Virus record (IMG/VR): IMGVR_UViG_3300011013_002204
Coordinates: 1 to 39,964 of that record
Source of the DNA: a virus
DNA: 39,964 nucleotides
Direction: 5' to 3' (one strand)
The first letter of the stretch is position 1; each line of letters begins with the position of its first letter. The notes below the pieces were generated by a model. The model had not been told where the DNA came from. It saw only the letters and a list, made by a program, of their open reading frames with translations, and did not search any database. Positions 1 through 39,073 of this stretch are shown in pieces. Position numbers and translations under genes: made by a program.

Positions 1-517
1 AAAGGGTTCACTCCTTCATGATGGTACTCTCATATTAAGGGGTTCACTCAAAGCATCGGGTACTCTCTTTTATGTGGGTTCACTCTGTTCGCATAATACT
101 TTCGGTGTATGGGGTTCACTCTCAAAATGTGGTAATCTCAAGCGTTAAGGCTCACTTTACTACTGTGTTACTTTCGGGAACCATGGTTCACTCATCTTCC
201 AGGATACTCTCCATACTCGGGGTTCACTCGTTTTCCATGATACTGTCCACTGTAGAGGTTCACTCTTTATAGTTAGTACTCTCTCGTATAGTGGTTCACT
301 CACCACATCTGGTACAAACTCATTTTCGGGTTCACTCATGTGTTGAGATACTCTCAATAGACGGGGTTCACTCTACCAAATTGGTACTATCGGTGGTACG
401 GGTTCACTCATTATTCATGCTACTATCATCACAACTGGTTCACTCTTAGAAGAAGATACTCTCTTTAGTTTTGGTTCACTCTGGGAGAATGGTACTCTCA
501 AATGATGGGGTTTACTC
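1..517 (-). repeat. TIGR-like array: alternating 9-bp repeats with 9-bp spacers, 36-bp period
   Basis: On the plus strand repeat A (GGTTCACTC) starts at 5, 41, 77 and every 36 bp to 509 (15 copies; 13 exact, variants at 149 and 509). Repeat B (consensus GGTACTCTC) starts at 23, 59 and every 36 bp to 491 (14 copies; only those at 23, 59 and 491 are exact, the rest differ by one to three bases). Every gap is exactly 9 bp, with no indel over 513 bp. The 28 spacers are all different: cttcatgat, atattaagg, aaagcatcg, ttttatgtg, tgttcgcat, ggtgtatgg, tcaaaatgt, aagcgttaa, tactactgt, gggaaccat, atcttccag, catactcgg, gttttccat, cactgtaga, tttatagtt, tcgtatagt, accacatct, tcattttcg, atgtgttga, aatagacgg, taccaaatt, ggtggtacg, attattcat, atcacaact, ttagaagaa, tttagtttt, tgggagaat, aaatgatgg. 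On the minus strand, the sense of the neighbouring gene, the repeats read GAGTGAACC and GAGAGTACC. The last A repeat (509-517) contains that gene's stop codon. The array is cut by the window edge. Period, dual spacers and neighbour match TIGR arrays, whose guide RNAs are about 36 nt with two spacers. Confidence 0.9.
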
Positions 518-1396
518 CATAGGCCAGTTAACTGGGGCTATGATGTGTGCGTGCCCCCGGTCAATGATGTAAGGCTTTGGTGGAGGTGTTCCATAATGTG
601 TCTCATAAGCAACGTGGTGCCAGTGAGCAAGGAATAACTTTGCAACATACCGTAAGGATGAGTTATGAATTTGTCCGGGAGGAATCTTTCCAGACTCCAA
701 CAAGGTTTTCAACTCCTTATCTTTAATGTTTTTCTTTTCTAGTTCCCGTGCAGCTCGTTCTGCATACTCTCCAGCTTCGTTCTTTGCTGTTTCGTATGCT
801 TTACGGGAGTCATAGAAGTGACCATACATATCCCCAGGCTTGTTACGGTTCTTCATAAAGACATCTGCCATCTTCCAACAGAGGGTCTTTAACTTTGCAT
901 TGTAGGGACGTTTCTGTCCTTTCTCCCAAACCATATCTGGGTTTAAACCTGCAAACGACCAAATGTGACCTACTGTTGGGGCTCTAGTAATATCTATATG
1001 TGCCAGTAACCCTGCTGAAATGATTGGTCCTACTCCAAAGATTGACTGGGACCAACGTCCTACTTCTTGGGCTGCAGCATATACACCCAAAGCCCCTTTA
1101 ATTTGAGTTTCTACTCTATGGGCGTTATCTGTTAACCAAGCTAGTAACTGATTAGGCTCATCTTCACCAGCGTATTCTGCTGCTGAGGAACGAACTATGT
1201 TTGCTGAACTTTTACGGGCTTCTTGCCAGGTATAGTAAAAGTCTACAAAGAAACGTGCCTGTGATGCTGTTAAGTCAGTTGCTGCTTTCTTAAGGTCCCG
1301 TGAAAGTAACTCTAATGGAAAGAATCCTAACTCAGCATATAGGTCAGACTCTGATTCTAGATCCTCTGCGTACTGAACTACCTCTTGTATAACCAT
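512..1396 (-). CDS. tasA: Tas-like protein (IS110 C-terminal/Nop-like domain, no nuclease domain), probable TasA
   Basis: 294 aa. The first ~110 residues are helical and rich in Ala, Glu and Arg, as in the coiled-coil of Nop-type proteins. Residues ~118-260 resemble the IS110 transposase C-terminal domain (Transposase_20): FGVGPIISAGLLAHID, then FAGLNPDMVW, a basic KRPYNAKLK segment, and VAKLFLAHWHHVAYE near the end. The RuvC-like DEDD catalytic domain of a real IS110 transposase is missing, and there is no HNH motif. In the TIGR-Tas family, Tas proteins have this Nop-like core. TasR adds RuvC, TasH adds HNH, and TasA has neither. The gene starts 3 bp after the preceding gene, and its stop codon lies inside the first repeat of the array. 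The predicted role is binding dual-spacer guide RNAs and, through them, DNA. A truncated transposase is the alternative, but the array argues against it. Function is inferred. Confidence 0.85.
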   Translation of the reverse strand: MVIQEVVQYAEDLESESDLYAELGFFPLELLSRDLKKAATDLTASQARFFVDFYYTWQEARKSSANIVRSSAAEYAGEDEPNQLLAWLTDNAHRVETQIKGALGVYAAAQEVGRWSQSIFGVGPIISAGLLAHIDITRAPTVGHIWSFAGLNPDMVWEKGQKRPYNAKLKTLCWKMADVFMKNRNKPGDMYGHFYDSRKAYETAKNEAGEYAERAARELEKKNIKDKELKTLLESGKIPPGQIHNSSLRYVAKLFLAHWHHVAYETHYGTPPPKPYIIDRGHAHIIAPVNWPME

Positions 1397-1399
1397 CTA

Positions 1400-1600
1400 C
1401 TAACTACTCCCTCTCTTACAGTTATTATGACCTAGTTCTAATAGTGATGTTTCCAGATTATTCCTAAAAGTAAAATCCTGCCATCGTTCTCCTGACTTGG
1501 ATGCATCAGTTCCTATAAAGCCCTGACACTTAAAACATTTATAGTATGTCTTAATTTCTCCCAGGCGTCTAAATACCTCTTTAAGGTCAGGTTGATCCAT
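1400..1600 (-). CDS. Small Cys-containing protein between nusG and tasA
   Basis: 66 aa, not recognised. It has CFKC near residue 22 and a further Cys near the C-terminus (HNNCKRGSS), so it could hold a metal, but the ligand set is incomplete. The start overlaps the nusG stop and the stop lies 3 bp before the tas-like gene, so it sits in one transcription unit with both. A role with the TIGR-Tas module is possible only by position. Confidence 0.7.
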   Translation of the reverse strand: MDQPDLKEVFRRLGEIKTYYKCFKCQGFIGTDASKSGERWQDFTFRNNLETSLLELGHNNCKRGSS

Positions 1601-2202
1601 TATAGTACTAACTGGTTAACAGGTATCTCTGTTCTAACATCTCTTCCCATTAAGGACACACTAACTGTAGCAGTCCCCTTTGTAGGATTAGTTGATAGGA
1701 CTGTTCCATTAAAGGCATCCATAGGACCACCAATTATAGTAACTAGGTCATCTTTCTGAAAGTTTGTCTCTGCCTTTTTAGTCATATCCTGAACATGAGA
1801 TATTATTCTAGCAGTCTCTTCATGACTTAGTGTTACTGGAGTCCACTGATCTGAATCAACAAAGTCTGGATTCTCTCCTGTAATGAATCCAGTTACTCCA
1901 GGCGTACCACTTACACATATATAGGTATTAGTCTCTAACTGCATATAAACAAGTATGTAACCAGGAAATAGTTTTTCCCTTCGAGTTCTCCGTTTCCCAT
2001 TCTTGAATACAACTTCTTCTTCTGTAGGTACTAAGACCTGAACTATCTTTTCTTGAAGGTTCAGGTTCTTAGCCCTTATCTCAATATTTTTCTTTACTTT
2101 GTCTTCACTACTTCCTAGTGTACTAATTATATACCAGTTGTATTCAATACTACTGGGAATGTTAACTGCTGATAAGGCTCTTGGTAATGTCATCAGTTCC
2201 AT
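1600..2202 (-). CDS. nusG: NusG-family transcription elongation factor
   Basis: 200 aa, near the usual bacterial NusG length. The N-terminal NGN domain begins at YNWYIISTLGSSEDKVKKN and continues through KLFPGYILVYM, GTPGVTGFITG and a helical linker. A C-terminal KOW domain starts near residue 150 (DLVTIIGGPMDAFNGTVLS, ending IPVNQLVL). NusG binds RNA polymerase at the clamp and suppresses pausing; the KOW domain links it to ribosomes or Rho. A phage copy probably alters elongation or termination on phage operons. It overlaps the genes on both sides and lies on the P1 unit that ends in the tas-like gene and array. Family assignment is firm; the phage-specific role is inferred. Confidence 0.93.
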   Translation of the reverse strand: MELMTLPRALSAVNIPSSIEYNWYIISTLGSSEDKVKKNIEIRAKNLNLQEKIVQVLVPTEEEVVFKNGKRRTRREKLFPGYILVYMQLETNTYICVSGTPGVTGFITGENPDFVDSDQWTPVTLSHEETARIISHVQDMTKKAETNFQKDDLVTIIGGPMDAFNGTVLSTNPTKGTATVSVSLMGRDVRTEIPVNQLVL

Positions 2203-12523: not shown

Positions 12524-13303
12524 TTAACTATAAACTCCTAAGTATGATTCTAGGTTCTCTAAAATCAGTTCAGGAATATCCTCATCTAAGTAATCTAAAG
12601 GATCTGGAGCAGGTCTAATTTTACCTTCAGTATTTAACTTCTTTTCTGAATAGGCTAATCTACTAGGCATAGTGGACCAGCCTCCTTCAACTATTCCAGT
12701 ATCTATACTACCAACAGACTCCTGTAACTGAATAGAAGCAACTTCTCTCATACTGTCAAATACTTCTACCATGTATAGAGGTGTATCTAAACCATTAGGC
12801 TGATATATATCAGTAATAAACTTATGTCTAGGAACTACCTTCTCCATAGATGAAGGAAGGCCAAAACCCACTATTCTGTACTTATCCATAAGGGATTCAT
12901 ACTTCTCTAAACACTGATTAAGTTGTTCTTCATTAATACCCTGTATCATACCTATTACTGGAACATTACCTAACTGATAGTTCAGGAACTTTAAGGTATT
13001 CTCTGCTGCATCTAAAGTTCTGGATGAGTGTAAATCTGAATCAGGTAATATAACTGCTGTGGGCTTAATGTACTCAATAGAAGCCCTAAGTATAACTATT
13101 TTACCAATACCATCAATGAATCTAGGGGCTTTATGGGAATAGTCAAGTATGACTGTTTCACCTTTTCTAGACCTAGCTCTATAGAAATCTCTATAAGGTT
13201 TATACTGATGGACTAAATCAGAAAAACAGACATGAAAACCTGGATTGAATACTTTATCTATTCTAGATAATAACTTAATTGGGGTTATAATAGCACTTTC
13301 CAT
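12524..13303 (-). CDS. dpdA: TGT/DpdA-like protein, copy 1
   Basis: 259 aa. The pattern fits the phage DpdA branch of the tRNA-guanine transglycosylase TIM barrel: ETVILDYSHKAPRF near residue 49, PTAVILPDSD near 83, VPVIGMIQGINEEQ near 115 and RIVGFGLPSS near 144. DpdA proteins exchange guanine in DNA for preQ0 or a derivative. The gene starts 1 bp after an HNH gene and abuts polA. A second, divergent copy lies at 17871-18704 in the same block as all preQ genes. Catalytic Asp and metal-ligand assignments are not certain by eye, so this copy could have changed function. A structure search would settle it. Confidence 0.6.
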   Translation of the reverse strand: MESAIITPIKLLSRIDKVFNPGFHVCFSDLVHQYKPYRDFYRARSRKGETVILDYSHKAPRFIDGIGKIVILRASIEYIKPTAVILPDSDLHSSRTLDAAENTLKFLNYQLGNVPVIGMIQGINEEQLNQCLEKYESLMDKYRIVGFGLPSSMEKVVPRHKFITDIYQPNGLDTPLYMVEVFDSMREVASIQLQESVGSIDTGIVEGGWSTMPSRLAYSEKKLNTEGKIRPAPDPLDYLDEDIPELILENLESYLGVYS

Positions 13304-13808: not shown

Positions 13809-14552
13809 TTAGACACCTCTCTTGGCACCCCAAATGTACTTATGTGTTTGTAGATTTAGTTTGTACTGATACTTCTTACAGAATTCAGCACATCTTTGTA
13901 ACCATTCATTTTCAGTAGTTCCCTTAATAGGATTCCAAGGAGAAATTAGCACAGTACCTCTAAAATAGTTATCAGCTAATCTAGCTTCTACAAAATTAAG
14001 ATCCCTTTCAGTTTTAACTACGCACTTAAGCTGATCTTGATGCCTAAAAGAACTAAAATCACTATATACAGGTTCTTTATTAGCCTTAGCACTAGGACAT
14101 TTAAGATCAACGACCCAACTTTCCACATACTCATTTAAGTCAAAGGGCACAGGAACTAGGCCTGAAGTCTCAACTTCAATATTATAGTTTTGCTCATGTA
14201 GTTTCCTAACTAATCCAGAAAAGGCTTCAGGCTGTTCTAGAGGTTCCCCACCTGTAATACAGATCCAAGGCTTCTTTATAGAACTAGAGTTCTTAGTGTT
14301 ATGAAACTTACTAACTGTGTCTAGAACTTCTTGAAAGCTATGATACTGTTCAGTGTCATGTTTCCAAGTATACTTTGTATCACACCAGGTACAACCTAAT
14401 GTACAGCCTTGAAATCTAACAAAGACTGTAGGTTCACCTGTATAGTTACCTTCACCTTGAACTGAATAGAAGATCTCTGATATATTTACTACTGGATTAA
14501 GTATTTCCCCGTTTTCCTTATCAGTAGTTACCGGAATTTTAGAAGATTGCAA
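13809..14552 (-). CDS. queE: 7-carboxy-7-deazaguanine synthase, radical SAM
   Basis: 247 aa. SEIFYSVQGEGNYTGEP leads to the radical SAM triplet C50-x3-C54-x2-C57 (CTLGCTWC), followed by the GGEP motif (ITGGEPLEQ) and a DLKCPSAK segment typical of QueE. It converts 6-carboxy-tetrahydropterin to 7-carboxy-7-deazaguanine with SAM and a 4Fe-4S cluster, the third step of preQ0 synthesis. The start overlaps the preceding gene by 14 bp. With FolE, QueD, QueC and QueF in the same block the pathway is complete. Confidence 0.95.
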   Translation of the reverse strand: MQSSKIPVTTDKENGEILNPVVNISEIFYSVQGEGNYTGEPTVFVRFQGCTLGCTWCDTKYTWKHDTEQYHSFQEVLDTVSKFHNTKNSSSIKKPWICITGGEPLEQPEAFSGLVRKLHEQNYNIEVETSGLVPVPFDLNEYVESWVVDLKCPSAKANKEPVYSDFSSFRHQDQLKCVVKTERDLNFVEARLADNYFRGTVLISPWNPIKGTTENEWLQRCAEFCKKYQYKLNLQTHKYIWGAKRGV

Positions 14553-14829
14553 AGTAAATAAGTGCTCCTATTAAAAAGCATATAATGCCTGTAGTGCTTA
14601 ATCTTGCCCAACGAGGCCAGTTTGGTAATGTATCCGCTATAATGTTCCCAGTTAACTTTCTAGTACTAACTTTCTTCTCTTTTACTTTACCTAGTTTCTG
14701 ATGGTACCAGTCAAAAGTAACCCAGGACTCAAATAGTTTCCATTCCGTCTTACACTTAGAACAGATTCTCTTTGTTATCTGTCCATCACAGCCTTTATGT
14801 AAGATACGATAGTTACTCAGAAGAGACAA
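14539..14829 (-). CDS. Zinc-knuckle membrane protein, TTG start
   Basis: 96 aa from TTG 14829. That start is preferred because GGGAGG stands eight bases upstream and it gives a 17-bp overlap with queD. An ATG at 14883 would overlap by 71 bp. It has ICSKCK near the N-terminus, a basic middle and one C-terminal hydrophobic helix (GIICFLIGALIYFAIF). Probably membrane-anchored; function unknown. Confidence 0.65.
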   Translation of the reverse strand: MSLLSNYRILHKGCDGQITKRICSKCKTEWKLFESWVTFDWYHQKLGKVKEKKVSTRKLTGNIIADTLPNWPRWARLSTTGIICFLIGALIYFAIF

Positions 14830-15319
14830 ATTCAAAGCCTCCCATAGACTGTACTGGAATATTAAAGTAGTTAGAGGAGTCATCTATAACAGCACAAGCT
14901 TTAGTAGTTTCCCAGAATGTTACTTCTACATTCCCTTCAACTAAATCTAGGTAGACTCCATACTCATCCATTACCTTAGCATGAATCCATCCACCTAGTA
15001 GTTCTGCTGTAGGAGGCATATCTATAACTACTAGAGAGTCTGAATCCCCACACTCAACTAAAGCATTTATAACTGGGTCTCCTACTTCTAGTATAGTATG
15101 GTGGTCTAAAGTACTATTTAGCCACTTACCTATACCATCATCTAGATCCCCAAAGTCCATAACCATACCATTATCAGGTCTACTTTCATCTTTAATTACA
15201 GGACCTTCTATAGATATCCTAATCCTGGCGTTATGACCATGTAGACGGGCACATTTACCCTTATGATTCAGAAGTCTATGTGCATAACATACTTCGTATT
15301 CTTTTTCTATTCTGGCCAT
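14813..15319 (-). CDS. queD: 6-carboxy-5,6,7,8-tetrahydropterin synthase
   Basis: 168 aa. Zinc ligands are in CYAHRL (H14) and LHGHN (H27, H29), with catalytic Cys C23 in KGKCARLHGHN. GMVMDFGDL (51-59), LDHHTIL (71-77), PTAE and VTFWETTKACAVI complete the T-fold family signature. It makes 6-carboxy-tetrahydropterin from dihydroneopterin triphosphate, the step after FolE. It ends inside the membrane-protein gene before queE. Confidence 0.95.
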   Translation of the reverse strand: MARIEKEYEVCYAHRLLNHKGKCARLHGHNARIRISIEGPVIKDESRPDNGMVMDFGDLDDGIGKWLNSTLDHHTILEVGDPVINALVECGDSDSLVVIDMPPTAELLGGWIHAKVMDEYGVYLDLVEGNVEVTFWETTKACAVIDDSSNYFNIPVQSMGGFEFVSSE

Positions 15320-15329
15320 ACCTTACTCC

Positions 15330-16310
15330 CTAGTCTACAGTTGAGACTCTTAACTGAGTTACATCTATCTTGTTACAGTAACTATCATAGACATCCTGAC
15401 TATTAGTAGCAATAAATTTCTTACTATCAAACCTCTTCTGTTGAAAGGTATTACGCCTTACTCTTAAAGAGGAAGTAAGTAGTTCACTAGAGTCTCCCAT
15501 TGCTGAAGTAAATTCAGCTCGGGCCTCTTCTTCTAAGGCTTTACCAAGTTCCTGATAGGCTTTACCTTGCATCCATTTATCACTAGCATCTGTTAATTCA
15601 GCTGCAGTGAAGTTAGTAAAGTCAACAGTAGGAGTTCCCCAACATAGATTAGAGAATCTACATCCTTCACATAAAGGATTTTCTACTGGTTCAGGTTCAT
15701 ACCCATCTACTATAATAGAATCAACTGACTCAATTAAAGGAAGGGCAAAGTCAGAATCTTTCTTCTCTATAACATCAGCAAGTTTAACTGATTCTTTATG
15801 CTTAAAGATAACATGGGTTTCTTCCACTGGGTAAGGAAGGTTATTACCGTGCATATAGAGTTGAGTTTGAGCCCTAATTCTAGGGAAGGCTTCCATACCT
15901 TTTTCACTGAACTTCTTAAAAGCCTGATAGTTACGTGCTTTAATCTCTAACATAGCAGGCTTATTCTTAATTTGAGGTCCACCTAAGATGAATCCATCTG
16001 GATGACCCTTTATGCCTGATCTTCCTATAGTAACTTCTGCCTGATTATCGCCAACATAGTCTAAGTCAAATCCTGCTCTTACAAGAAGATCAACTATCTC
16101 AGATTCCTGATAATGTCCATCATCTAGGAGGAGTTGAAGTTGCAAGTCATAGTCTAAATCACTGGCTACCTCACCAGCATTAGTCATCTGAAACCTTTTA
16201 TAGTTATAGTATGTTTCTCTAGGACACGTACTGATACTACTTATACCAAAATAGTTCCTACGTTCCCTACCCCTATATATGTCAAGGACATTCTCTGTTA
16301 AGACACCCAT
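15330..16310 (-). CDS. Cas4/RecB-family PD-(D/E)XK exonuclease with Fe-S Cys set
   Basis: 326 aa. Nuclease motifs are GHPDGF (102-107) and LEIKA (121-125). Four Cys placed as in Cas4/AddB fit a 4Fe-4S cluster: C29 (STCPRE) plus C214, C217 and C223 (CEGCRFSNLC). A QTQLYMHG helix follows the active site. Such phage enzymes resect DNA ends for recombination, which fits the Rad52-like protein and UvrD-like helicase nearby. It may instead degrade host DNA. No Cas1/Cas2 or CRISPR locus is present, so a spacer-acquisition role is not suggested. Confidence 0.88.
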   Translation of the reverse strand: MGVLTENVLDIYRGRERRNYFGISSISTCPRETYYNYKRFQMTNAGEVASDLDYDLQLQLLLDDGHYQESEIVDLLVRAGFDLDYVGDNQAEVTIGRSGIKGHPDGFILGGPQIKNKPAMLEIKARNYQAFKKFSEKGMEAFPRIRAQTQLYMHGNNLPYPVEETHVIFKHKESVKLADVIEKKDSDFALPLIESVDSIIVDGYEPEPVENPLCEGCRFSNLCWGTPTVDFTNFTAAELTDASDKWMQGKAYQELGKALEEEARAEFTSAMGDSSELLTSSLRVRRNTFQQKRFDSKKFIATNSQDVYDSYCNKIDVTQLRVSTVD

Positions 16311-16849
16311 GATAACCTACTCTTTGGTGTTTCTTTAATTAAGGGAAATAGATTTTCCTGGTCAGTATAAACCCACCTAGTAGCAGGTGTAAACTTCATA
16401 TCTTCAAAGGCTTCTTCTAAACTATCAGGAACTGGGTTATTAAATAGAATAACATCATTCTTACCCAGACCATGGTAGTTTATATTACCTGAATTAGTGT
16501 AGTTAACTACTACTGTTTTAGGCTTATTTATCCAAGCAGGTGAAGTAGATCCACTTGAAGGTAAAGTAGGATTAGAAATATGTAAATCTATATCAAACTG
16601 ACAGGTAATAAGAGCAGTAATTAAACTTCCCATACCTGTAGGTATTCCATCATCACTGGTTTGTAGACAAAGCCAACGATTAGTCTTCCTCATATCAGGA
16701 GTAGTAATACTTAATGTGCCTGTAATAATACCTTCAACTAGTTCTTCTATTTTAGGGCCAGAAGTATTTTCCAGATCTATATGAACCATAGGAATACCTA
16801 GATTATGACCCCACTGCCTAGACTTAACCTCAAAATTAGTTGCTTTCAT
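16298..16849 (-). CDS. Hypothetical protein within the preQ gene block
   Basis: 183 aa, not firmly recognised. It appears alpha/beta, with WLCLQTSDDGIPTGMGSL, FDIDLHISNPTLPS, KTVVVNYTNSG and WVYTDQENLFPLI. The order of segments recalls the second half of QueE without the Cys triplet, but this is weak. It overlaps the Cas4-like gene by 13 bp and the following MazG/Nmad-like gene by 14 bp. A role with modified-base synthesis is guessed from position. Confidence 0.65.
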   Translation of the reverse strand: MKATNFEVKSRQWGHNLGIPMVHIDLENTSGPKIEELVEGIITGTLSITTPDMRKTNRWLCLQTSDDGIPTGMGSLITALITCQFDIDLHISNPTLPSSGSTSPAWINKPKTVVVNYTNSGNINYHGLGKNDVILFNNPVPDSLEEAFEDMKFTPATRWVYTDQENLFPLIKETPKSRLSWVS

Positions 16850-17186
16850 TTACTTCCAGCATCCTATAATACAAACTTGCATAAACCGCAATCATAAGAT
16901 TGTCCATAAACTCATCATCTAGTTTATCTTTACCTGCTTTACGCTCAATAAAGATATCCCATAGACGCATACCTTTTCTAAATGTACCAAATACAAGACC
17001 TGCAATACCTGTAGGTCTCCAATCTGAACCATACTGTTTTTGGTTTAACTTAACTGTATCTCTTATATCCTGAAATAAACCTTCTAGATGTTTATCAAAA
17101 TCAGGATGTCTAGTAAAAGGATCAACCCTTCTTGAAACTAAATCATTTATCTTGTTCTGAAAAGGGTCTTCCGGATAGGTGTTCAA
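16836..17186 (-). CDS. DUF1599/Nmad1-like protein, probable TTG start
   Basis: About 116 aa from TTG 17186, chosen because AGAGG lies 9 bases upstream; an upstream TTG at 17204 is possible. The core QKQYGSDWRPTGIAGLVFG followed by FRKGMRLWDI and a helical FMDNLMIAVYASLYYRML resembles the DUF1599 family (nucleotide modification associated domain 1). That family is often found with phage base-modification genes. It sits between QueF/MazG-like and QueE/QueD genes, which fits. Confidence 0.65.
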   Translation of the reverse strand: MNTYPEDPFQNKINDLVSRRVDPFTRHPDFDKHLEGLFQDIRDTVKLNQKQYGSDWRPTGIAGLVFGTFRKGMRLWDIFIERKAGKDKLDDEFMDNLMIAVYASLYYRMLEVNESN

Positions 17187-17436
17187 TATAGATTTCCTCT
17201 GCAAGTCTAAACGAAGTTGCTGCTACCTGAATTGCTTCTTTATAAACCTTGACTAGATCCCTATTATCAGCATTGATTTTAAGTTCATCCCAAAGTTCAT
17301 CAAACTCTTCCTTAATAACAGCATATGCCTCATGATAGGATCTGTAGTTACCGAATTTATTTACTCCCTTAGTTATCTCTTGATAAAATTCAGTAACTAC
17401 TTCATCCTGACGACCTGGGGACTCATATGTCGGCAT
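17143..17436 (-). CDS. MazG-like nucleotide pyrophosphohydrolase
   Basis: About 97 aa from ATG 17436; in-frame ATG 17448 and TTG 17451 lack a ribosome site. KFGNYRSYHEAYAVIKEEFDELWDELK carries the E-E-x-x-E/D metal helix of all-alpha NTP pyrophosphatases, followed by KEAIQVAATSFRLAEEI. Relatives cleave unwanted (d)NTPs to NMPs. Next to preQ genes it may remove canonical dGTP or its damaged forms, but this is inference. It overlaps queF by 14 bp. Confidence 0.78.
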   Translation of the reverse strand: MPTYESPGRQDEVVTEFYQEITKGVNKFGNYRSYHEAYAVIKEEFDELWDELKINADNRDLVKVYKEAIQVAATSFRLAEEIYIEHLSGRPFSEQDK

Positions 17437-17884
17437 ATTCACTCTCATCAAATAAAGGCCCTACTGATACTGATTCAGGAATACCACCTCTATTATTAAA
17501 ATCACCTCTTACATAGAGACGTTTGGGGTTTATTGCCTGATGAAAGTCAGTATAAATCTGATTGACTAATTCTTCATAGAAGTGACCTTCATTACGATAG
17601 GAAACTATATAGAACTTTGCTGACTTTAATTCAATGCACCAACCATCAGGTACATACTCAACATAGAGTTTACAGAAATCAGGTTGACCTGTTACAGGAC
17701 ATAAAGATGTTAACTCATCAGTTGTCCAAATTACTCTATAGTCATGTTGAGGAGCATTTTGAGGAGCAGGAAAGATATGTAATTCCTTTTCTCCATGTAG
17801 ATGTACTATCTCTACTTCTTTATCTGATAAAGTGTAAAGATTAGGATTAGCAACTCCTAGTGCAGGTATTTTAGCCTCTTCCAT
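17423..17884 (-). CDS. queF: NADPH-dependent preQ0 reductase
   Basis: 153 aa, the short unimodular type. The catalytic Cys is C62 in SLCPVTGQPDF. CIELKSAKFYIVSYRNEG holds the QueF family motif (E84, K86, S87) and substrate loop, and RGDFNNRGG follows near residue 127. It reduces the nitrile of preQ0 to the aminomethyl group of preQ1 using NADPH. Its presence beyond QueC means the end product here is likely preQ1 rather than preQ0. It overlaps the second DpdA-like gene by 14 bp. Confidence 0.95.
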   Translation of the reverse strand: MEEAKIPALGVANPNLYTLSDKEVEIVHLHGEKELHIFPAPQNAPQHDYRVIWTTDELTSLCPVTGQPDFCKLYVEYVPDGWCIELKSAKFYIVSYRNEGHFYEELVNQIYTDFHQAINPKRLYVRGDFNNRGGIPESVSVGPLFDESEYADI

Positions 17885-18704
17885 GTGATAAGGACCCCTT
17901 TAACATACAAATATTCCATAGCCAGTCTTCTTTTATATTCAGAAGTGTCTGTGCAGGAGTAAAATAGTCAAAATATACACCTTTAGGTACTAAAGGCTCT
18001 ATTCCAAACTTTCTACCATTAAGGGCGTTAGTAATAGGTGCTCCAGTATCTACACTAACTTCTGGACTTAACCCATTCCAGTGATTGGGACCATTCCAAA
18101 CAGTCTGGTCATTATAAATAGCAAACTCTTCTAAGGTATTCATCCCCAACAGATGATAACGGTTGAATGTTATGCCTGCTTTAGATAACTCTTTAATAGC
18201 TAAGATTCTAGTTCTACTAAGTTCTGCAAGGTTAGCTCTATTAGTATCATGTTCAGGTAACTTTGAACGGTGTGCTAAAGTTATATCATAGGGAATACAT
18301 ACTGTACTAAAACCCCAATCTTCCTTTAGAACTCTGCCACATTCAACTACTTCCTGATATGTAGTACCCTGAATAACAGGCCATACCTTATCTTTACCCC
18401 ATAAACTGACAGCATCATCTAAAATGCCTAGAGTTGCCTTTAAGTCGTTTAGATGATCTGGAGGTATTATATAAGTAGGATTTAGTACCTGATTAACTTC
18501 TTCCATTTCCTCTAAAGTTACAGGCTCACCCAGTTCATTAACTGAGTTATCTAAAACTACTTCCCTACCCTCTTTTACCATCTGTAAATAGTGAGCAAGG
18601 TACCTATCTTCTGTACATAGATGAGTTAAAACAAAGTCAAAGTCTGTTAGATGAGGTAATAGACTAAGGAGGCTTACTGGTGCCTCCATAGCTAAACTAA
18701 CCAT
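17871..18704 (-). CDS. dpdA: TGT/DpdA-like DNA 7-deazaguanine transglycosylase, copy 2
   Basis: 277 aa. The TIM-barrel TGT/DpdA pattern is clearer than in copy 1: EVVLDNSVNELGEPVTLEE near residue 47 (candidate catalytic Asp), PTYIIPPDHL near 76, DKVWPVIQGTTYQEVVECG near 104 and FSTVCIPYD near 132, with HLLGMNTLEEF in the second half. Phage DpdA enzymes insert preQ0 or preQ1 for guanine in DNA. The gene is tightly coupled to folE (TAATG) upstream and queF downstream, which supports a DNA-modification role. No tRNA-type C-terminal zinc site is seen. Confidence 0.75.
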   Translation of the reverse strand: MVSLAMEAPVSLLSLLPHLTDFDFVLTHLCTEDRYLAHYLQMVKEGREVVLDNSVNELGEPVTLEEMEEVNQVLNPTYIIPPDHLNDLKATLGILDDAVSLWGKDKVWPVIQGTTYQEVVECGRVLKEDWGFSTVCIPYDITLAHRSKLPEHDTNRANLAELSRTRILAIKELSKAGITFNRYHLLGMNTLEEFAIYNDQTVWNGPNHWNGLSPEVSVDTGAPITNALNGRKFGIEPLVPKGVYFDYFTPAQTLLNIKEDWLWNICMLKGSLSHGRG

Positions 18705-19234
18705 TAAAACGTGCCTCTACTCTGTTCAGTTGTAACAGGAGCACTCTGATGAGCACCCCTAAACATTAGACATCCATGTACTCCAGTAACTGATACTTTA
18801 ACCCCAATAGGATTTACTCTTGAGTATAGAGTATCAGCAAGTTCCCTAGTATACATTTCCTGCATAATAGGACGTTTACCTAATATAACTGCTATCCTAG
18901 CAAACTTAGAAAGGCCCAAAACCCTTCCATTAGGAGCATAACTAATATCTACAGAATATGTACAGGGAAGTAGATGATGAGGACATAAAGTTACTACATC
19001 TATATTAGATATAGTCATGAGTTCCTCATACTTGTCCTCAAACAACTTAGTATGCTGATCTAGTTCCTTATTTATTCTATTAGGTGTCCAGCAGAAGTCT
19101 GAAAACATCTTCTGTAAGCGTTCTGCTGTACCTTTAAACTGATTGGATCCCTCCCAACCCCCATATGTATGAAACAAACTACCTACCATATCAGTAAATG
19201 GTGCTTTAGGTAGATGAGTATGATTATCCGTCAA
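18704..19234 (-). CDS. folE: GTP cyclohydrolase I, TTG start
   Basis: 176 aa from TTG 19234. AGGAGG stands five bases before this TTG, and it leaves an 11-bp overlap with the previous gene; an ATG at 19372 would overlap by 149 bp. The FolE signature is CPHHLLPCTYSVDISYAPNG with GLSKFARI after it. The zinc ligands are the Cys and His of CPHH and a later Cys (GVHGCLMFRGA). It converts GTP to dihydroneopterin triphosphate, the entry to preQ0 synthesis. Expression is coupled to the DpdA-like gene. Confidence 0.95.
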   Translation of the reverse strand: MTDNHTHLPKAPFTDMVGSLFHTYGGWEGSNQFKGTAERLQKMFSDFCWTPNRINKELDQHTKLFEDKYEELMTISNIDVVTLCPHHLLPCTYSVDISYAPNGRVLGLSKFARIAVILGKRPIMQEMYTRELADTLYSRVNPIGVKVSVTGVHGCLMFRGAHQSAPVTTEQSRGTF

Positions 19235-19712
19235 AGATTCCTCCTCTTTTGATTCTTCCGACGCTCCAAGCATGTTCAATTGCATTTTGTACTTGCTCCG
19301 ATATTGTTGTCTCAGTTTCTTCATCGAAACTTGGGGTATGTAGTATATCCTCCGCCCTATCACTCCCCACACCTAGAACATCTAGACCCTGAACTTCACA
19401 TCTGGGACATTCAGCACCATCAGCAGGAGTTCCCCTTTCTAAACGAACAACACCTTCCACACGGCAGTTAGGACATCTTATAGTTATAGTATAGAATAAC
19501 TCTTTATAGAAGATCTTTGTTAGTTCTTCCCTATAAACCTCTGAAGCCTCCTGTCTTGAAGAAAATATCTTACTAGTTAAAGGATCTTCCTTTTCTTCAG
19601 GGTCTGACTCTACTGAGCCAAATTCTATCCCTTCAGAATAAGAAACTGAAGCTCTACGCTTACCTTTCTTCTGCTTAAAGGGATTGCCAAAGAGTGCCTT
19701 TTTAATATCCAT
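19224..19712 (-). CDS. Zinc-ribbon hypothetical protein
   Basis: 162 aa. The central CPNC and CPRC pairs, about 22 residues apart, form a zinc ribbon. The N-terminus is basic (NPFKQKKGKRRA) and the middle acidic. The C-terminal helix (EQVQNAIEHAWSVGRIKRGG) is amphipathic. No family recognised. It lies between queC and folE with overlaps at both ends. Confidence 0.75.
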   Translation of the reverse strand: MDIKKALFGNPFKQKKGKRRASVSYSEGIEFGSVESDPEEKEDPLTSKIFSSRQEASEVYREELTKIFYKELFYTITIRCPNCRVEGVVRLERGTPADGAECPRCEVQGLDVLGVGSDRAEDILHTPSFDEETETTISEQVQNAIEHAWSVGRIKRGGIFDG

Positions 19713-20416
19713 TAGTTATACTCCGTTGGATCTGCAATGCCCACTTCAGCAAAGGCTGATAACCTTATCTGACAGGAATCACATTCACCACAAGCTTTTT
19801 CACCCCCATTATAACATGAGTAGGTTAAGTCCAAAGGAGCCTGTAAGTCTAATCCCCACTTAATTATATCTACTTTACTCTTACCTATAATAGGAGTCTC
19901 AATAGTTATAGTGTGGCCAGTCTCTACAAATCTCTTTCTAGCTAAATTTAGGGCCTGGCTAGCAGCCAAAACAAATTCTGGTCTACAATCTGGATACCCA
20001 CTGTAATCAACAGCATTAAATCCAGTATAGACCTCATCTGCTTCTATTGTATCAGCATAACCAAAGGCATAGGTTAAGAACAGCATATTTCTTTGTGGTA
20101 CCCAGGTACTAGGTATTCCTTCTTCAGTTCCTGCTTTAGGTGGTGTAGGAACCTTAAATTCTTGTTTATCTCCTACTACAAGAGAAGTAGCACCATTAAA
20201 GAAGTTCTCACTAAAAGGAATTCTTACAAACTGGTGTGTCTTAACTCCTAAAGTCTTCCCAATAACCGAAGCCTGTTCAAGTTCTCTTGCTCCATGCCTT
20301 TGTCCATAAGAGAAACTCATAGCATGAAGGTCCTCCCCTTTGTTCAGGGCCTGTTTAGCAATACAGGATGTAACTGTACTATCTAAACCTCCTGATAGCA
20401 TGACCAACCTAGTCAT
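19712..20416 (-). CDS. queC: 7-cyano-7-deazaguanine (preQ0) synthase
   Basis: 234 aa. The ATP-binding PP-loop SGGLDST is at residues 8-14, followed by SFSYGQRH, TWVPQRNMLF and GFNAVDYSGYPDCRPEF. A C-terminal zinc site is formed by SCYNGG, ACGECDSC and IRLSAF. It converts 7-carboxy-7-deazaguanine to preQ0 with ATP and ammonia. It overlaps the following and preceding genes by 1-4 bp. Confidence 0.96.
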   Translation of the reverse strand: MTRLVMLSGGLDSTVTSCIAKQALNKGEDLHAMSFSYGQRHGARELEQASVIGKTLGVKTHQFVRIPFSENFFNGATSLVVGDKQEFKVPTPPKAGTEEGIPSTWVPQRNMLFLTYAFGYADTIEADEVYTGFNAVDYSGYPDCRPEFVLAASQALNLARKRFVETGHTITIETPIIGKSKVDIIKWGLDLQAPLDLTYSCYNGGEKACGECDSCQIRLSAFAEVGIADPTEYN

Positions 20417-35163: not shown

Positions 35164-35517
35164 CTATAAGTCTTTCATAAAACTAACTACAAGGAAAGCT
35201 AACGTAACACCTATTATTACTGAAACTACTGTACCAGTTAGTCTTCCCTTCTTATTTCTAAGTTTAGCCTGTTTCTTAAAATCTATATCTCTTTTCCTCC
35301 AATTACAGTTAGCACATAAAAGTTGATAACGCTTTGGGTTATCTACAACCTTCTTGTATAACTGACCTCTAGTTTCTCCAAATCTACGTTCTATATTACC
35401 ATCAGAGTTAACATGGTCTATCTGTAAAACCCTAGGATCCTTTTCTCCACACTTTTTACACTTTCCACCTAGGAGTTTATGGATAACTAACTTTCGTCTC
35501 TGATAGTAGGTCCTCAT
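35164..35517 (-). CDS. HNH-fold protein with C-terminal membrane helix
   Basis: 117 aa. CKKCG (20-24), LQIDHVNSDG (31-40) and LLCANCNWRKR form an HNH/treble-clef nuclease core. A hydrophobic segment near residues 93-112 (VVSVIIGVTLAFLVVSFM) is unusual for the family and would anchor it in the membrane. It overlaps the GmhA-like gene by 1 bp. Confidence 0.75.
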   Translation of the reverse strand: MRTYYQRRKLVIHKLLGGKCKKCGEKDPRVLQIDHVNSDGNIERRFGETRGQLYKKVVDNPKRYQLLCANCNWRKRDIDFKKQAKLRNKKGRLTGTVVSVIIGVTLAFLVVSFMKDL

Positions 35518-36035
35518 CAGACATTTGCTAACTTTCCTTTTATAAGTCCACTTAAATCATGAACCCATCTAAGTTGTAATTCCTGAACTCTAGGAGTATT
35601 TTCACTAGGTGGTTCAGGAGTAACTAAATAGTTACAGAAAGGTTCTAAATCCCTAATATCTTCTCCACCATTAAGCAAAATAGTCACTGCCCCTTTACAT
35701 TGAGCAGTTTCAAAAGCATTAAGTAAGTAGGGAGCACGTCCACTAATACTAAAGGCTATAACTACATCATTAGGACGTACTAAACCCTGAATCTGTCTAC
35801 TGAAAACAACATCCCATCCAAAGTCATTTGTAATAGCAGTTAAAACACTTATGTTGTCGTTAAGGCAATATACAGAGAGAGGATCTTCATACTGTTCATA
35901 CTTACCGGCCAGTTCTCCAGCAAAGTGAGTTGCAGTTGCTGCATTACCACCTACCCCAAATATGAATACAGACCCCTTTGATCCTAGCACATTAGAAAGT
36001 ATAAGTGCAAGATCTTCTATATTCGACTTTAGCAT
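35517..36035 (-). CDS. gmhA: SIS-domain phosphoheptose isomerase-like protein
   Basis: 172 aa. FGVGGNAATATHFAGELAGK is the phosphosugar-binding loop of GmhA. TAITNDFGWDVVFSRQ, VIAFSISGRAPYLLNA and a late VQELQLRWVH match the family, whose length is about 190 aa. GmhA converts sedoheptulose 7-phosphate to D-glycero-D-manno-heptose 7-phosphate. A transaldolase (a sedoheptulose-7-phosphate enzyme) and an HddA-like kinase nearby support that role over other SIS isomerases. Confidence 0.85.
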   Translation of the reverse strand: MLKSNIEDLALILSNVLGSKGSVFIFGVGGNAATATHFAGELAGKYEQYEDPLSVYCLNDNISVLTAITNDFGWDVVFSRQIQGLVRPNDVVIAFSISGRAPYLLNAFETAQCKGAVTILLNGGEDIRDLEPFCNYLVTPEPPSENTPRVQELQLRWVHDLSGLIKGKLANV

Positions 36036-36038
36036 TAA

Positions 36039-36314
36039 CTAATCTCCTATCCACCTTCTCTTCTTTACTTTGACTTTAGGTAAAAACTTTTTAGCCCTAG
36101 AACTAATATGTTTCACCTGTAAACTTGTTAGATCCTCAAATCCTATCTGCCTAAAACCTTTATTAGCCCCTGCAACCCCATACTCCTGGTAGAACCAGTG
36201 GTCATTAGCAGTCTTAGATAAACTATCATAAAAAGCCTGCATTTCAGGAGGGCTAGGGTCTTCAGTAGGAAAACTTATCTCAAGCAACCACTTACCACTT
36301 CTTTTAATTGTCAT
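36039..36314 (-). CDS. Small hypothetical protein
   Basis: 91 aa. Strand start (GKWLLEISFPTEDP), then a helix and a basic tail (KKFLPKVKVKKRRWIGD). Not recognised. Overlaps the next gene's stop by 4 bp. Confidence 0.68.
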   Translation of the reverse strand: MTIKRSGKWLLEISFPTEDPSPPEMQAFYDSLSKTANDHWFYQEYGVAGANKGFRQIGFEDLTSLQVKHISSRAKKFLPKVKVKKRRWIGD

Positions 36315-36556
36315 AGGTTTATACCTGGTCCTCTTTTCTTAGGTCTACCCTTAGATTTAGGGGCTAAAAGGGACATTGCAGGTTTATCCTGACCCTCAAT
36401 AGGCTCCCTAGGTACATCTATCTGGGTAAAGGCCTGCTTTTCCCTTATTGAGTTGTCAAACATCTGAGTCCTGCCACACTTCAAGCAGCTACCAGAACTA
36501 TTAGGACCATTGGCTATCTCTATATTCCAGTGATGAGTACAATCTTTAAGTTCCAC
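36311..36556 (-). CDS. Small zinc-binding protein
   Basis: 81 aa. CTHHWNIEIANGPNSSGSC then LKCGRTQMFDNS place Cys/His-His and C-x2-C ligands as in a single zinc ribbon. The C-terminus is basic (KSKGRPKKRGPG). Similar mini-ribbons are widespread in bacterial viruses. Overlaps the transaldolase stop by 11 bp. Confidence 0.72.
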   Translation of the reverse strand: MELKDCTHHWNIEIANGPNSSGSCLKCGRTQMFDNSIREKQAFTQIDVPREPIEGQDKPAMSLLAPKSKGRPKKRGPGINL

Positions 36557-37229
36557 TTACACCTGTCCTTTGCCCACTGAGTTGATCTACAGTTACATAG
36601 TCATTCTCAAACTGATTAGAAGTAAATATAGAGTACTGATGAGTAATCATCTTCTGTAAAACAGGGGGTGGCACAGTAACTATATGTGCTCCTGCTTTAA
36701 TACAGTCAAGGACATTACCAACTGTACGAACTGAACCAACTATAAGTTCACAGCCTTTATCAAAGAAGTTATTGTCTAAATAAATAACACAGTCCTTAAC
36801 TACTTCTCTATAATCCCCACCCTCATCATCTATCCTACCAGCAAACAAACTAACAAAGTTAGCACCTGCTTTAGATGCTAGAATAATTTGAGCTAAGGAT
36901 AACATAGCAGTACAGTTTACAGGAATACCTTTATCACTAAGTTCCCTAATAATATCTAAGTTATGATTTCCCTTAGTATCAAGGAACGGAACCTTAATTG
37001 CTAAATTACCATTTATAGGTGACAACCACTTATACAGAGTTTCTGCCTCTTTAAGAAAATCAGCACCTGATTCAACAGAAATATGCTTTCCATTTATATA
37101 AGCTGAAATTTCTTCTAAATCCCCACCTTCTTTCTTAAGGATTGAGGGATTTGTAGTAACACCAGAAATAACTGCACTCCAGTGTTTTATATCATCCAAG
37201 TTAGAGGTATCTAAAAAGATTTTAGACAT
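36546..37229 (-). CDS. Transaldolase / fructose-6-phosphate aldolase-like enzyme
   Basis: 227 aa, the short TalC/FSA type. MSKIFLDTSNLDDI, GVTTNPSIL (23-31), the Schiff-base Lys K79 in LAIKVPF, NCTAMLSLAQ, FVSLFAGRIDDEGGD and IVGSVRTV are all family landmarks. Transaldolase moves a dihydroxyacetone unit between sugar phosphates and can make sedoheptulose 7-phosphate. Phages often carry it to shift host pentose metabolism. Here the GmhA- and HddA-like genes suggest heptose supply. Confidence 0.92.
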   Translation of the reverse strand: MSKIFLDTSNLDDIKHWSAVISGVTTNPSILKKEGGDLEEISAYINGKHISVESGADFLKEAETLYKWLSPINGNLAIKVPFLDTKGNHNLDIIRELSDKGIPVNCTAMLSLAQIILASKAGANFVSLFAGRIDDEGGDYREVVKDCVIYLDNNFFDKGCELIVGSVRTVGNVLDCIKAGAHIVTVPPPVLQKMITHQYSIFTSNQFENDYVTVDQLSGQRTGVSGT

Positions 37230-37483
37230 TACCTGACCTCGACTATTTTATTATCTATAAGGAAAGTTAAGACTTGACTAAAATGAGGTTCACCAACCCC
37301 ACTTATCTGTTTAAGACGCCACCTTCTCAAACCCTTTGTAGGAATACCCTTATTAGTAAGTAACTCTACTAGGATAATAGGTGTATCTTCAGGAGAGTCC
37401 TCTGCAACACCTTCGTATATTGCTAGACTATCTTCTGTAGCCCGAATTAGGGACTTAGGACTTAGTTTAGAACCTTTTGCCAT
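37229..37483 (-). CDS. Small winged-helix-like hypothetical protein
   Basis: 84 aa. A helix-rich body ending GEPHFSQVLTFLIDNKIVEV, like a recognition helix and wing. Basic N-terminus (AKGSKLSPKS). Unrecognised. Confidence 0.68.
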   Translation of the reverse strand: MAKGSKLSPKSLIRATEDSLAIYEGVAEDSPEDTPIILVELLTNKGIPTKGLRRWRLKQISGVGEPHFSQVLTFLIDNKIVEVR

Positions 37484-37485
37484 AA

Positions 37486-37722
37486 CTAACCTCTCTTACT
37501 ACCTCTATGCTCCTTATAGAAATACTTTGCATCAGCCTGTGCAGCCTTCTTAGTAGGCTGATCCTGAGTAACATTTGCTAGAGCCTGTAGAGCACGTGCT
37601 GCTGAAAGGTTTGATTTGTGACCTTTCAAAGCAAGTGTTCTACGTTTCTTTGCAGGATAGGATTTCTTCCAACCTGTATGCTTAGATTTAGAACCTGCTG
37701 CCTTATACCACCTTTCAACCAT
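37486..37722 (-). CDS. Small basic protein
   Basis: 78 aa, very rich in Lys and Arg (KSYPAKKRRTLALKGHKS), then a helix AARALQALANVTQ and KKAAQADAKYFYKEHRG. Probably nucleic-acid binding. Similar in style to the partial gene at the right edge. Confidence 0.7.
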   Translation of the reverse strand: MVERWYKAAGSKSKHTGWKKSYPAKKRRTLALKGHKSNLSAARALQALANVTQDQPTKKAAQADAKYFYKEHRGSKRG

Positions 37723-38078
37723 TAGGAAATACCTGCCTTTCTAGCTAGTTTATTCCTTAAAGCAACAACCTTAGGATAGGCTTCCCTCCACTGTCCTACT
37801 AACTCCATATGTTCAGGATCTTCTATACTCTCAGGATTCATTAGAGGTCTGGAACCAAATTCCCAACGACCTTTACCACCCCATCTATTCTGAAGCATAT
37901 TCCCTAGAGTATCTATATAGTCATCTAACATAGAAATGATCTCTAGGTCACTCATAGTATGAAGGTTTGTCTCTTCATACATAGTTTGATAGAGAGGGAT
38001 GGTCAGTACTAACCTGTCTAAGAAAATAAACTCTCTCTGAGATAAGTTAGAAAATATACCACCAAACCTCTGAGTCAT
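37722..38078 (-). CDS. Hypothetical protein, RFGG-LFS family, copy 2
   Basis: 118 aa. MTQRFGGIFSNLSQREF matches the start of the 27238 protein almost exactly. Helical body, C-terminal QWREAYPKVVALRNKLARK. Function unknown. Overlaps the HddA-like gene by 1 bp. Confidence 0.75.
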   Translation of the reverse strand: MTQRFGGIFSNLSQREFIFLDRLVLTIPLYQTMYEETNLHTMSDLEIISMLDDYIDTLGNMLQNRWGGKGRWEFGSRPLMNPESIEDPEHMELVGQWREAYPKVVALRNKLARKAGIS

Positions 38079-39073
38079 TAGATAAAGACCTCCATCTGTC
38101 TTTCAGACATATGAACTATCTCTGTTCCAGTATGAGCCACCTTTATAGGAATTCCACCTATAGGTTCAAGAGACCTTTCACTATACATTAAGAAGTATCC
38201 ACCCCCACCTAAACCAATTAACTTTCCACCTAGAGCACCAGCATCTAAACACTTATCCCAGACTTCAGCCATTTCAGGTGTAGCAATATCAGGATCCCTA
38301 TCCATTTTAGAGCCCCAATGCTCAGAAAATAGTTTTGCTATCTCTTTATAGTTTTTAGTATAAATATGCCTTTCTATAAGTTTTCCTATCTCTTTAACTT
38401 TCTGTAAGGAAGCTAGCATATCTACATCAGATTCCTGAGTCTTCTCAATCTGCCTAGTTGCAATATCTAGATTAGGCCTAACCCTATTTGTAAATACTAG
38501 ATAAAGGTTCCTAGCAAACTGAGACACATCAACAGGAGAACTTCCACTAGGTTCTTCTAATCTTTCAGACCCTAAAATGACTGAATGAGATCCACCTCTT
38601 GAAGCAAAATACTGATCCTGCATACCACCAGGAATTCCTGCAGCCTCTCTTTCTACATGGAAAGACTCATTAAAAAGATTCTCTGTAGTATAAGACTCTC
38701 CACCTTTAAGTGCATTTAATCCTACTAATAGGGCACACGTAAAGGACGATGAACCACCTAACCCAGATGATTCAGGCACATCACTAAAAGTAGAAATTTC
38801 TAATCCACCCTTTTCAGGTAAACCTATATGTTTTATAGCCTCTGCTGCAACTCTATTTTCAAGTTGTTCTAAACCTTCAGAAGAACACTCAACTGACTCA
38901 TTCTTAGAGTACTTTAAGTGTATAACTGGATCTAGTATAGAATGTACCATCACATAGACATATAAGTCACAGGCAAATCCTAGAAAGTATCCACCATGCT
39001 CCTTATAGTAATTAGCAAAATCTGTTCCACCTCCACCTAAAGGTATCCTTAATGGTGCCCTACTTAAAATCAT
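38078..39073 (-). CDS. hddA: GHMP-family sugar kinase, HddA-like heptose 7-phosphate kinase
   Basis: 331 aa. GHMP motif 1 is RAPLRIPLGGGGTDF (5-19), motif 2 is DVPESSGLGGSSSFTCALL, and motif 3 is GALGGKLIGLGGGGYFLMY. EAAGIPGGMQDQYFASRGG is typical of HddA and related sugar kinases. HddA phosphorylates D-glycero-alpha-D-manno-heptose 7-phosphate at C1. Fucose- and other GHMP sugar kinases are related alternatives, but the nearby GmhA-like gene favours heptose. The 1,7-bisphosphate product would need a phosphatase and a nucleotidyltransferase, which are not in this window. Confidence 0.85.
   Translation of the reverse strand: MILSRAPLRIPLGGGGTDFANYYKEHGGYFLGFACDLYVYVMVHSILDPVIHLKYSKNESVECSSEGLEQLENRVAAEAIKHIGLPEKGGLEISTFSDVPESSGLGGSSSFTCALLVGLNALKGGESYTTENLFNESFHVEREAAGIPGGMQDQYFASRGGSHSVILGSERLEEPSGSSPVDVSQFARNLYLVFTNRVRPNLDIATRQIEKTQESDVDMLASLQKVKEIGKLIERHIYTKNYKEIAKLFSEHWGSKMDRDPDIATPEMAEVWDKCLDAGALGGKLIGLGGGGYFLMYSERSLEPIGGIPIKVAHTGTEIVHMSERQMEVFI

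What the first reader, a model, noticed from the sequence alone, without database searches (positions are those of the whole stretch)
1..1396. TIGR-Tas system: dual-spacer 36-bp array directly after a Tas-like gene in a phage
Seen: two alternating 9-bp repeats and 28 unique 9-bp spacers in perfect 36-bp register over 513 bp, beside a Nop/IS110-C-terminal-type protein. Known: TIGR arrays give ~36-nt guide RNAs with two spacers, and Tas proteins have a Nop-like core and use the guide to recognise DNA on both strands. No CRISPR or ordinary tandem repeat has this geometry. The 9-bp spacers are all different, as guides would be. Inferred: the locus makes dual-spacer guides for a phage-borne DNA-binding effector.
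Basis: partly seen in the sequence, partly recalled or inferred. Interest (0 to 1): 0.96.

Follow-up and report, generated by a model that had tools for sequence, protein, structure and literature searches.

The report
Phage TIGR-TasA dual-guide RNA system
A phage carries a nuclease-free TIGR-Tas system, a recently described RNA-guided DNA-binding system with paired 9-letter guides; it is a real but ordinary member of a known kind, and its 200-odd relatives show how its guide RNAs pair their ends and how the guide arrays change.

Summary
On the minus strand a 294-aa gene (512-1396) is followed, from its own stop codon, by an array with a perfect 36-bp register: edge GAGTGAACC, 9-nt spacer, loop GAGAGTACC, 9-nt spacer. 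There are 14 complete units before the contig ends inside the array. The two-repeat core matches 13 times against 0.04 expected. The protein is a Tas protein without a nuclease domain (TasA type): its profile finds TasR and TasH, and all 11 significant PDB fold matches of the AlphaFold model are TasH or TasR. About 200 phage relatives were fetched and nearly all carry such an array on the gene's strand. New at family level: within arrays, base pairing links the two ends of one 36-nt unit (edge i with edge i+1; about 80% Watson-Crick in informative cases), not positions within one repeat (about 38%), as expected if each unit acts as one RNA. Units turn over inside arrays, with no leader end. 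Natural targets stay unknown: tests were at chance, except one weak lead, an exact 18-base match in a phage sharing five genes with this one.

The parts
1..517 (-). TIGR array: 15 edge repeats (GAGTGAACC), 14 loop repeats (GAGAGTACC, degenerate), 14 complete units with 28 spacers of 9 nt; cut by the contig end
   Evidence: 13 matches vs 0.04 expected
509..517 (-). first edge repeat GAGTAAACC, overlapping the tas stop codon (512-514)
512..1396 (-). tasA gene, 294 aa; Nop/IS110-C-terminal RNA-binding fold, no nuclease domain
   Evidence: PF02371 3.9e-5; TasR 9mty 1.6e-14, profile 1.6e-25; AlphaFold pLDDT 88.2, all-helical; PDB fold matches all TasH/TasR
1600..2202 (-). NusG-like antiterminator, two genes upstream on the same strand; possible co-transcription, not a conserved part of the system
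   Evidence: PF02357 3.5e-20, phrog_6386 8.3e-23; no neighbour gene conserved across 87 tas clusters

Best explanation
This is a phage TIGR-TasA system. The tas gene and array are read as one minus-strand transcript (inferred from strand and overlap). A TasA dimer binds each unit; a host RNase trims the transcript inside the edge repeats to 36-nt guides (shown by others for TasA, TasR and TasH; here supported by end-to-end pairing of units across relatives). Each guide holds spacer A, the loop, then spacer B. In TasR, A pairs one DNA strand and B the other over about 16-18 bp (taken over by homology). Lacking a nuclease, the complex most likely binds and bends DNA and so blocks transcription or replication of a competing phage or plasmid (inferred, about 50%; the rest goes to regulation of host genes or another role).
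For: Array geometry and chance test. Tas homology by sequence, profile and fold. 36-bp arrays on the tas strand beside nearly all relatives in IMG/VR and in six bacterial genome records. In 1738 distinct units edge(i+1) base 3 pairs edge(i) base 8 (97%) and base 4 pairs base 7 (94%); in informative cases Watson-Crick 79.8% and 81.0% against 40.1% and 36.5% within one repeat; observed 1834 and 1794 against shuffled-edge means of 1527 and 1457, sd 12. Salicola phage CGphi29, source of the published TasH, has near-identical repeats AAGCGAGCC/AAGACAACC in the same order and strand (PMC12045711).
Against: No transcript, small-RNA or binding data. No target established: relatives' genomes, one host genome and three IMG/VR scans gave chance-level matches. 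The window's own edges are too uniform to show covariation by themselves. Loop repeats are degenerate, so some units may be dead. The base after the edge is C in 8 of 14 units here, whereas it is a purine in 95% of the family. The strand argument from G-U pairs is not uniform: pair 1-9 shows A-C far more than G-U.
Confidence: 0.85

Rival explanations
1. The same dual-guide complex regulates host or phage genes and does not fight rival mobile elements.
For: TasA has no nuclease, so binding a resident genome need not be lethal; one of seven Halomonas units has a 16-base match (gap 1) in its own host genome.
Against: Six of seven Halomonas units have no match in that host, and the one match fails at both outermost bases. 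No enrichment of targets in tas-bearing phages themselves.
Confidence: 0.25
2. It is a remnant or a member of the IS110 transposase family with an unrelated repeat array.
For: Pfam Transposase_20 match and PHROG label 'transposase'.
Against: Only the C-terminal part matches; no IS110 DEDD domain family matched; model all-helical without a nuclease sheet; closest solved relatives are TasR and TasH, with IS621 far behind (1.6e-25 vs 4.7e-5); gene and array travel together.
Confidence: 0.02
3. The array is decayed: the gene is kept but most guides no longer work.
For: Only a minority of the 14 loop repeats are exactly GAGAGTACC; one unit has both repeats altered (AAGTGAGCC/GAGATTACC, about 122-157).
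Against: Register is perfect over 513 bp and 13 of 15 edges are identical. Loops vary in relatives too, and the gene is open with the family's invariant residues kept.
Confidence: 0.1

Closest known systems
TIGR-TasA (Faure et al. 2025, PMC12045711; e.g. Flavonifractor plautii FpTIGR)
   Same: Solo Nop-type Tas protein beside a dual-repeat array with 36-nt units and 9-nt spacers; such systems are common in phages.
   Different: Own repeat sequences and 14 new spacer pairs; array starts inside the tas stop codon; base after the edge mostly C. No parB-like partner gene seen among conserved neighbours.
TasH of Salicola phage CGphi29 (SpTIGR; PDB 21kl, 9w04)
   Same: Repeat pattern (AAGCGAGCC/AAGACAACC), order and strand; Nop core, best fold match.
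   Different: No HNH nuclease here; aligned part about 20-27% identical.
TasR (PDB 9mty)
   Same: Best sequence hit in PDB and same core fold.
   Different: No RuvC domain; TasR boxes are UG/CCA, here GA/CC.
IS110/IS621 bridge-RNA transposases
   Same: Share the C-terminal RNA-binding domain.
   Different: No DEDD transposase domain; an array of guides in place of one bridge RNA.

Membership tests
TIGR-Tas | Nop-domain Tas protein | tested here: met
TIGR-Tas | two alternating 8-12-nt repeats separated by about 9-nt spacers next to tas | tested here: met
TIGR-Tas | extra edge-repeat pairs between the two edges of one tigRNA, supported by covariation | tested here: met
   met in the relatives taken together; window edges alone are too uniform
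TIGR-Tas | array begins with a truncated edge repeat and ends with one before a terminator | tested here: inconclusive
   starts with an altered edge repeat at the tas stop codon; the far end lies beyond the contig
TIGR-Tas | array processed to 36-nt RNAs bound by Tas | not testable with these tools
   needs small-RNA sequencing
TIGR-Tas | tandem-spacer binding of both DNA strands | not testable with these tools
   needs binding assays; in-silico target searches were at chance
TasA (nuclease-less subtype) | no RuvC or HNH domain | tested here: met
   294 aa, only PF02371 matched above its cut-off; all-helical model
IS110 transposase | N-terminal DEDD transposase domain | tested here: not met
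   no such family matched, no beta strands in the model
CRISPR-Cas | single 25-36-nt repeats with similar-sized spacers and cas genes | tested here: not met
   two 9-nt repeats; the only near thing among the genes scanned is a Cas4-type phage exonuclease

The most novel reading that the evidence does not exclude
TasA arrays are a phage-against-phage interference system: guides aim at protein-coding genes of phages competing for the same hosts, and the stock of guides is renewed by exchanging whole 36-nt units inside arrays, without an acquisition machinery. One window guide pair matches 18 of 18 bases (gap 2) in the nuclease-like gene of a phage that shares DNA polymerase and a 7-deazaguanine gene set with this one.
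Probability: 0.15. Interest if true: 0.85.

Novelty: new member of a known kind. Interest (0 to 1): 0.45.

Why it matters
TIGR-Tas was described in 2025, and its natural targets, the job of nuclease-less TasA and the way arrays gain guides are open. The hundreds of phage TasA loci reachable from this one show that each 36-nt unit is under selection as one RNA with paired ends, that spacers A and B are inherited together, and that turnover is internal and not polarised. They also give groups of close relatives in which the question of targets can be tested.

Tried and rejected
Targets in tas-bearing loci (about 1.3 Mb): 3 exact 8+8 matches against 1-13 with partners shuffled. Codon-phase test of variable sites in related guides: looked striking in one family, not significant overall (same-phase pairs within a half 16 vs 11.1, P=0.056, and 36 vs 30.5, P=0.11). 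Peptide and junction likelihood tests: gap-0 peptide hits 3227 vs 3181 sd 20 with partners shuffled across arrays (a control that does not hold composition fixed), gaps 1 and 2 nothing; junction likelihood, shuffled within arrays, no signal. IMG/VR scan with a widely shared guide: 25 contigs, about 18 independent, spread over gaps 0-2 like chance. Halomonas host genome: 1 of 7 units, both outermost bases mismatched. Two window guides in IMG/VR: one contig each, about 1.6 expected from the first scan; the other window guides do not match those two phages beyond chance. Search for a conserved partner gene: none; the largest clusters are antisense or other frames of tas itself. In-place unit replacement as the sole mode of turnover: rejected, since intervals of unequal length are commoner than equal ones (133 vs 36).

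Full report
What is there. On the minus strand of this 39,964-base virus record an open frame of 294 codons (512-1396) is followed at once by an array that runs to the contig end. Read in the gene's direction each unit is edge repeat GAGTGAACC, 9-nt spacer A, loop repeat GAGAGTACC, 9-nt spacer B, exactly 36 bp. Fourteen complete units with 28 different spacers are present, and the first edge repeat (GAGTAAACC) contains the tas stop codon. The core of the unit matches 13 times, all in the array, against 0.04 expected from shuffles. Edges are almost uniform and loops degenerate.

The protein. Pfam gives Transposase_20 (C-terminal part only). The solved chains closest by sequence are TasR (9mty, 1.6e-14) and TasH (1.4e-10); a 60-member family profile gives 1.6e-25 and 5.1e-13, with IS621 at 4.7e-5. 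An AlphaFold2 model from that alignment (mean pLDDT 88.2, pTM 0.83) is all-helical, without the beta sheet of a RuvC-type or DEDD nuclease, and all 11 significant PDB fold matches are TasH or TasR. It is therefore a nuclease-less Tas protein, TasA in the nomenclature of Faure et al. 2025 (PMC12045711).

Relatives. Five close relatives, then 80 of 247, six in bacterial genome records including Halomonas, Acidobacteriaceae and Candidatus Propionivibrio, and three more clade searches. Array parsing found dual-repeat arrays in all but five of 215 loci (contig duplicates included). In the run that scored both strands every array above the threshold lay on the tas strand. Array consensus edges are GAGCGAGCC, GAACGAGTC, GAGTGAACC, GATCGAGAC and similar. 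The published TasH phage, Salicola CGphi29, uses AAGCGAGCC/AAGACAACC in the same order. In 95% of distinct units the first spacer base is a purine, mostly A, so in most relatives it belongs to a CCR box and the variable part is 8 + 8 nt; in the window it is C after the edge in 8 of 14 units.

Guide-unit pairing. Over 1738 distinct units the 5' half of edge i+1 pairs with the 3' half of edge i: base 3 with base 8 (97% paired; G-C, A-T and T-A), base 4 with base 7 (94%; C-G and T-A). Where neighbouring edges differ, pairing across the unit is Watson-Crick in 79.8% and 81.0%, against 40.1% and 36.5% within the same repeat and 38.3% and 39.2% for the opposite neighbour. Shuffling edges inside arrays lowers the counts from 1834 and 1794 to 1527 and 1457 (sd 12). 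Loop bases 4 and 7 do not pair. This fits the published finding that tigRNAs run from the middle of one edge to the middle of the next and that edge pairs form between the two edges of one tigRNA. The window's own edges are too uniform to add to this.

Array evolution. Spacers A and B of a unit are inherited together: 123 unit pairs differ at no more than 1 of 16 bases, against 0 after shuffling partners; changes are transitions 160, transversions 80. Related arrays share subsets of units in order, with retained units diverging at about the rate of the tas gene in the L002/L003 pair. Unshared units occur along the whole array: the fraction shared by fifths, 5' to 3', is 0.45, 0.53, 0.56, 0.63, 0.46, so there is no single growing end. 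Both swaps at fixed length and changes of length occur. No neighbouring gene is conserved across 87 tas clusters; gene plus array is the whole cassette.

Targets. From the published cut pattern (8-nt 3' overhangs and the C-5 rule) I inferred that the target strand reads spA, 0-2 bp, rc(spB). Searches of tas-bearing loci, a host genome and IMG/VR gave chance-level results. One window guide pair (CCGAGTATG + GT + ATCTTCCAG) matches exactly once in IMG/VR, inside an open frame that looks like a PD-(D/E)XK nuclease (own reading of the sequence, not scanned) of a 51.8-kb phage contig without detectable tas that shares DNA polymerase A, QueC, QueD, QueE and FolE homologues with the window. Of 25 contigs hit by another pattern, none shares more than one gene in the stretch held, but about 1.6 hits are expected by chance and the other 13 window guides do not match this phage beyond chance. 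It is a lead, no more.

Verdict. The system is a TIGR-TasA and a new member of a known kind. Guide production is strongly supported by homology and covariation, DNA binding by homology only, and the biological role is open.

Noticed in passing
window 1600-2202 (-): NusG/RfaH-like antiterminator two genes upstream of tas on the same strand; it could help RNA polymerase through the array.
   Followed up: partly
window 13809-20416 (-): Radical-SAM QueE-like, QueD, GTP cyclohydrolase I and QueC genes: a 7-deazaguanine pathway, as used by phages to modify DNA against restriction. Two unknown proteins in or near it (12524-13303, 17871-18704) both match phrog_20335.
   Followed up: partly
window 35517-39073 (-): SIS isomerase, transaldolase and GHMP kinase genes, perhaps for a heptose-type sugar.
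   Followed up: partly
PHROG phrog_4285 (window 512-1396): The Tas protein falls in a PHROG filed as 'transposase, integration and excision', so TIGR loci are probably hidden in phage annotations under that name.
   Followed up: no
L018 10850-13170, L019 11411-13480, L031 2326-4008: Very long TIGR arrays, about 47-58 units, against 5-15 usual in the published survey.
   Followed up: no
L244 8507-8526 (-), contig IMGVR_UViG_3300036795_000052: Exact 18-base match (gap 2) of window unit CCGAGTATG/CTGGAAGAT in a nuclease-like gene of a distantly related phage without detectable tas.
   Followed up: partly
L005 19525-20995 and L006 18693-19063: TIGR arrays about 7.5-8.5 kb from the tas gene on the same strand; L006 also has a short second array next to tas.
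   Followed up: no
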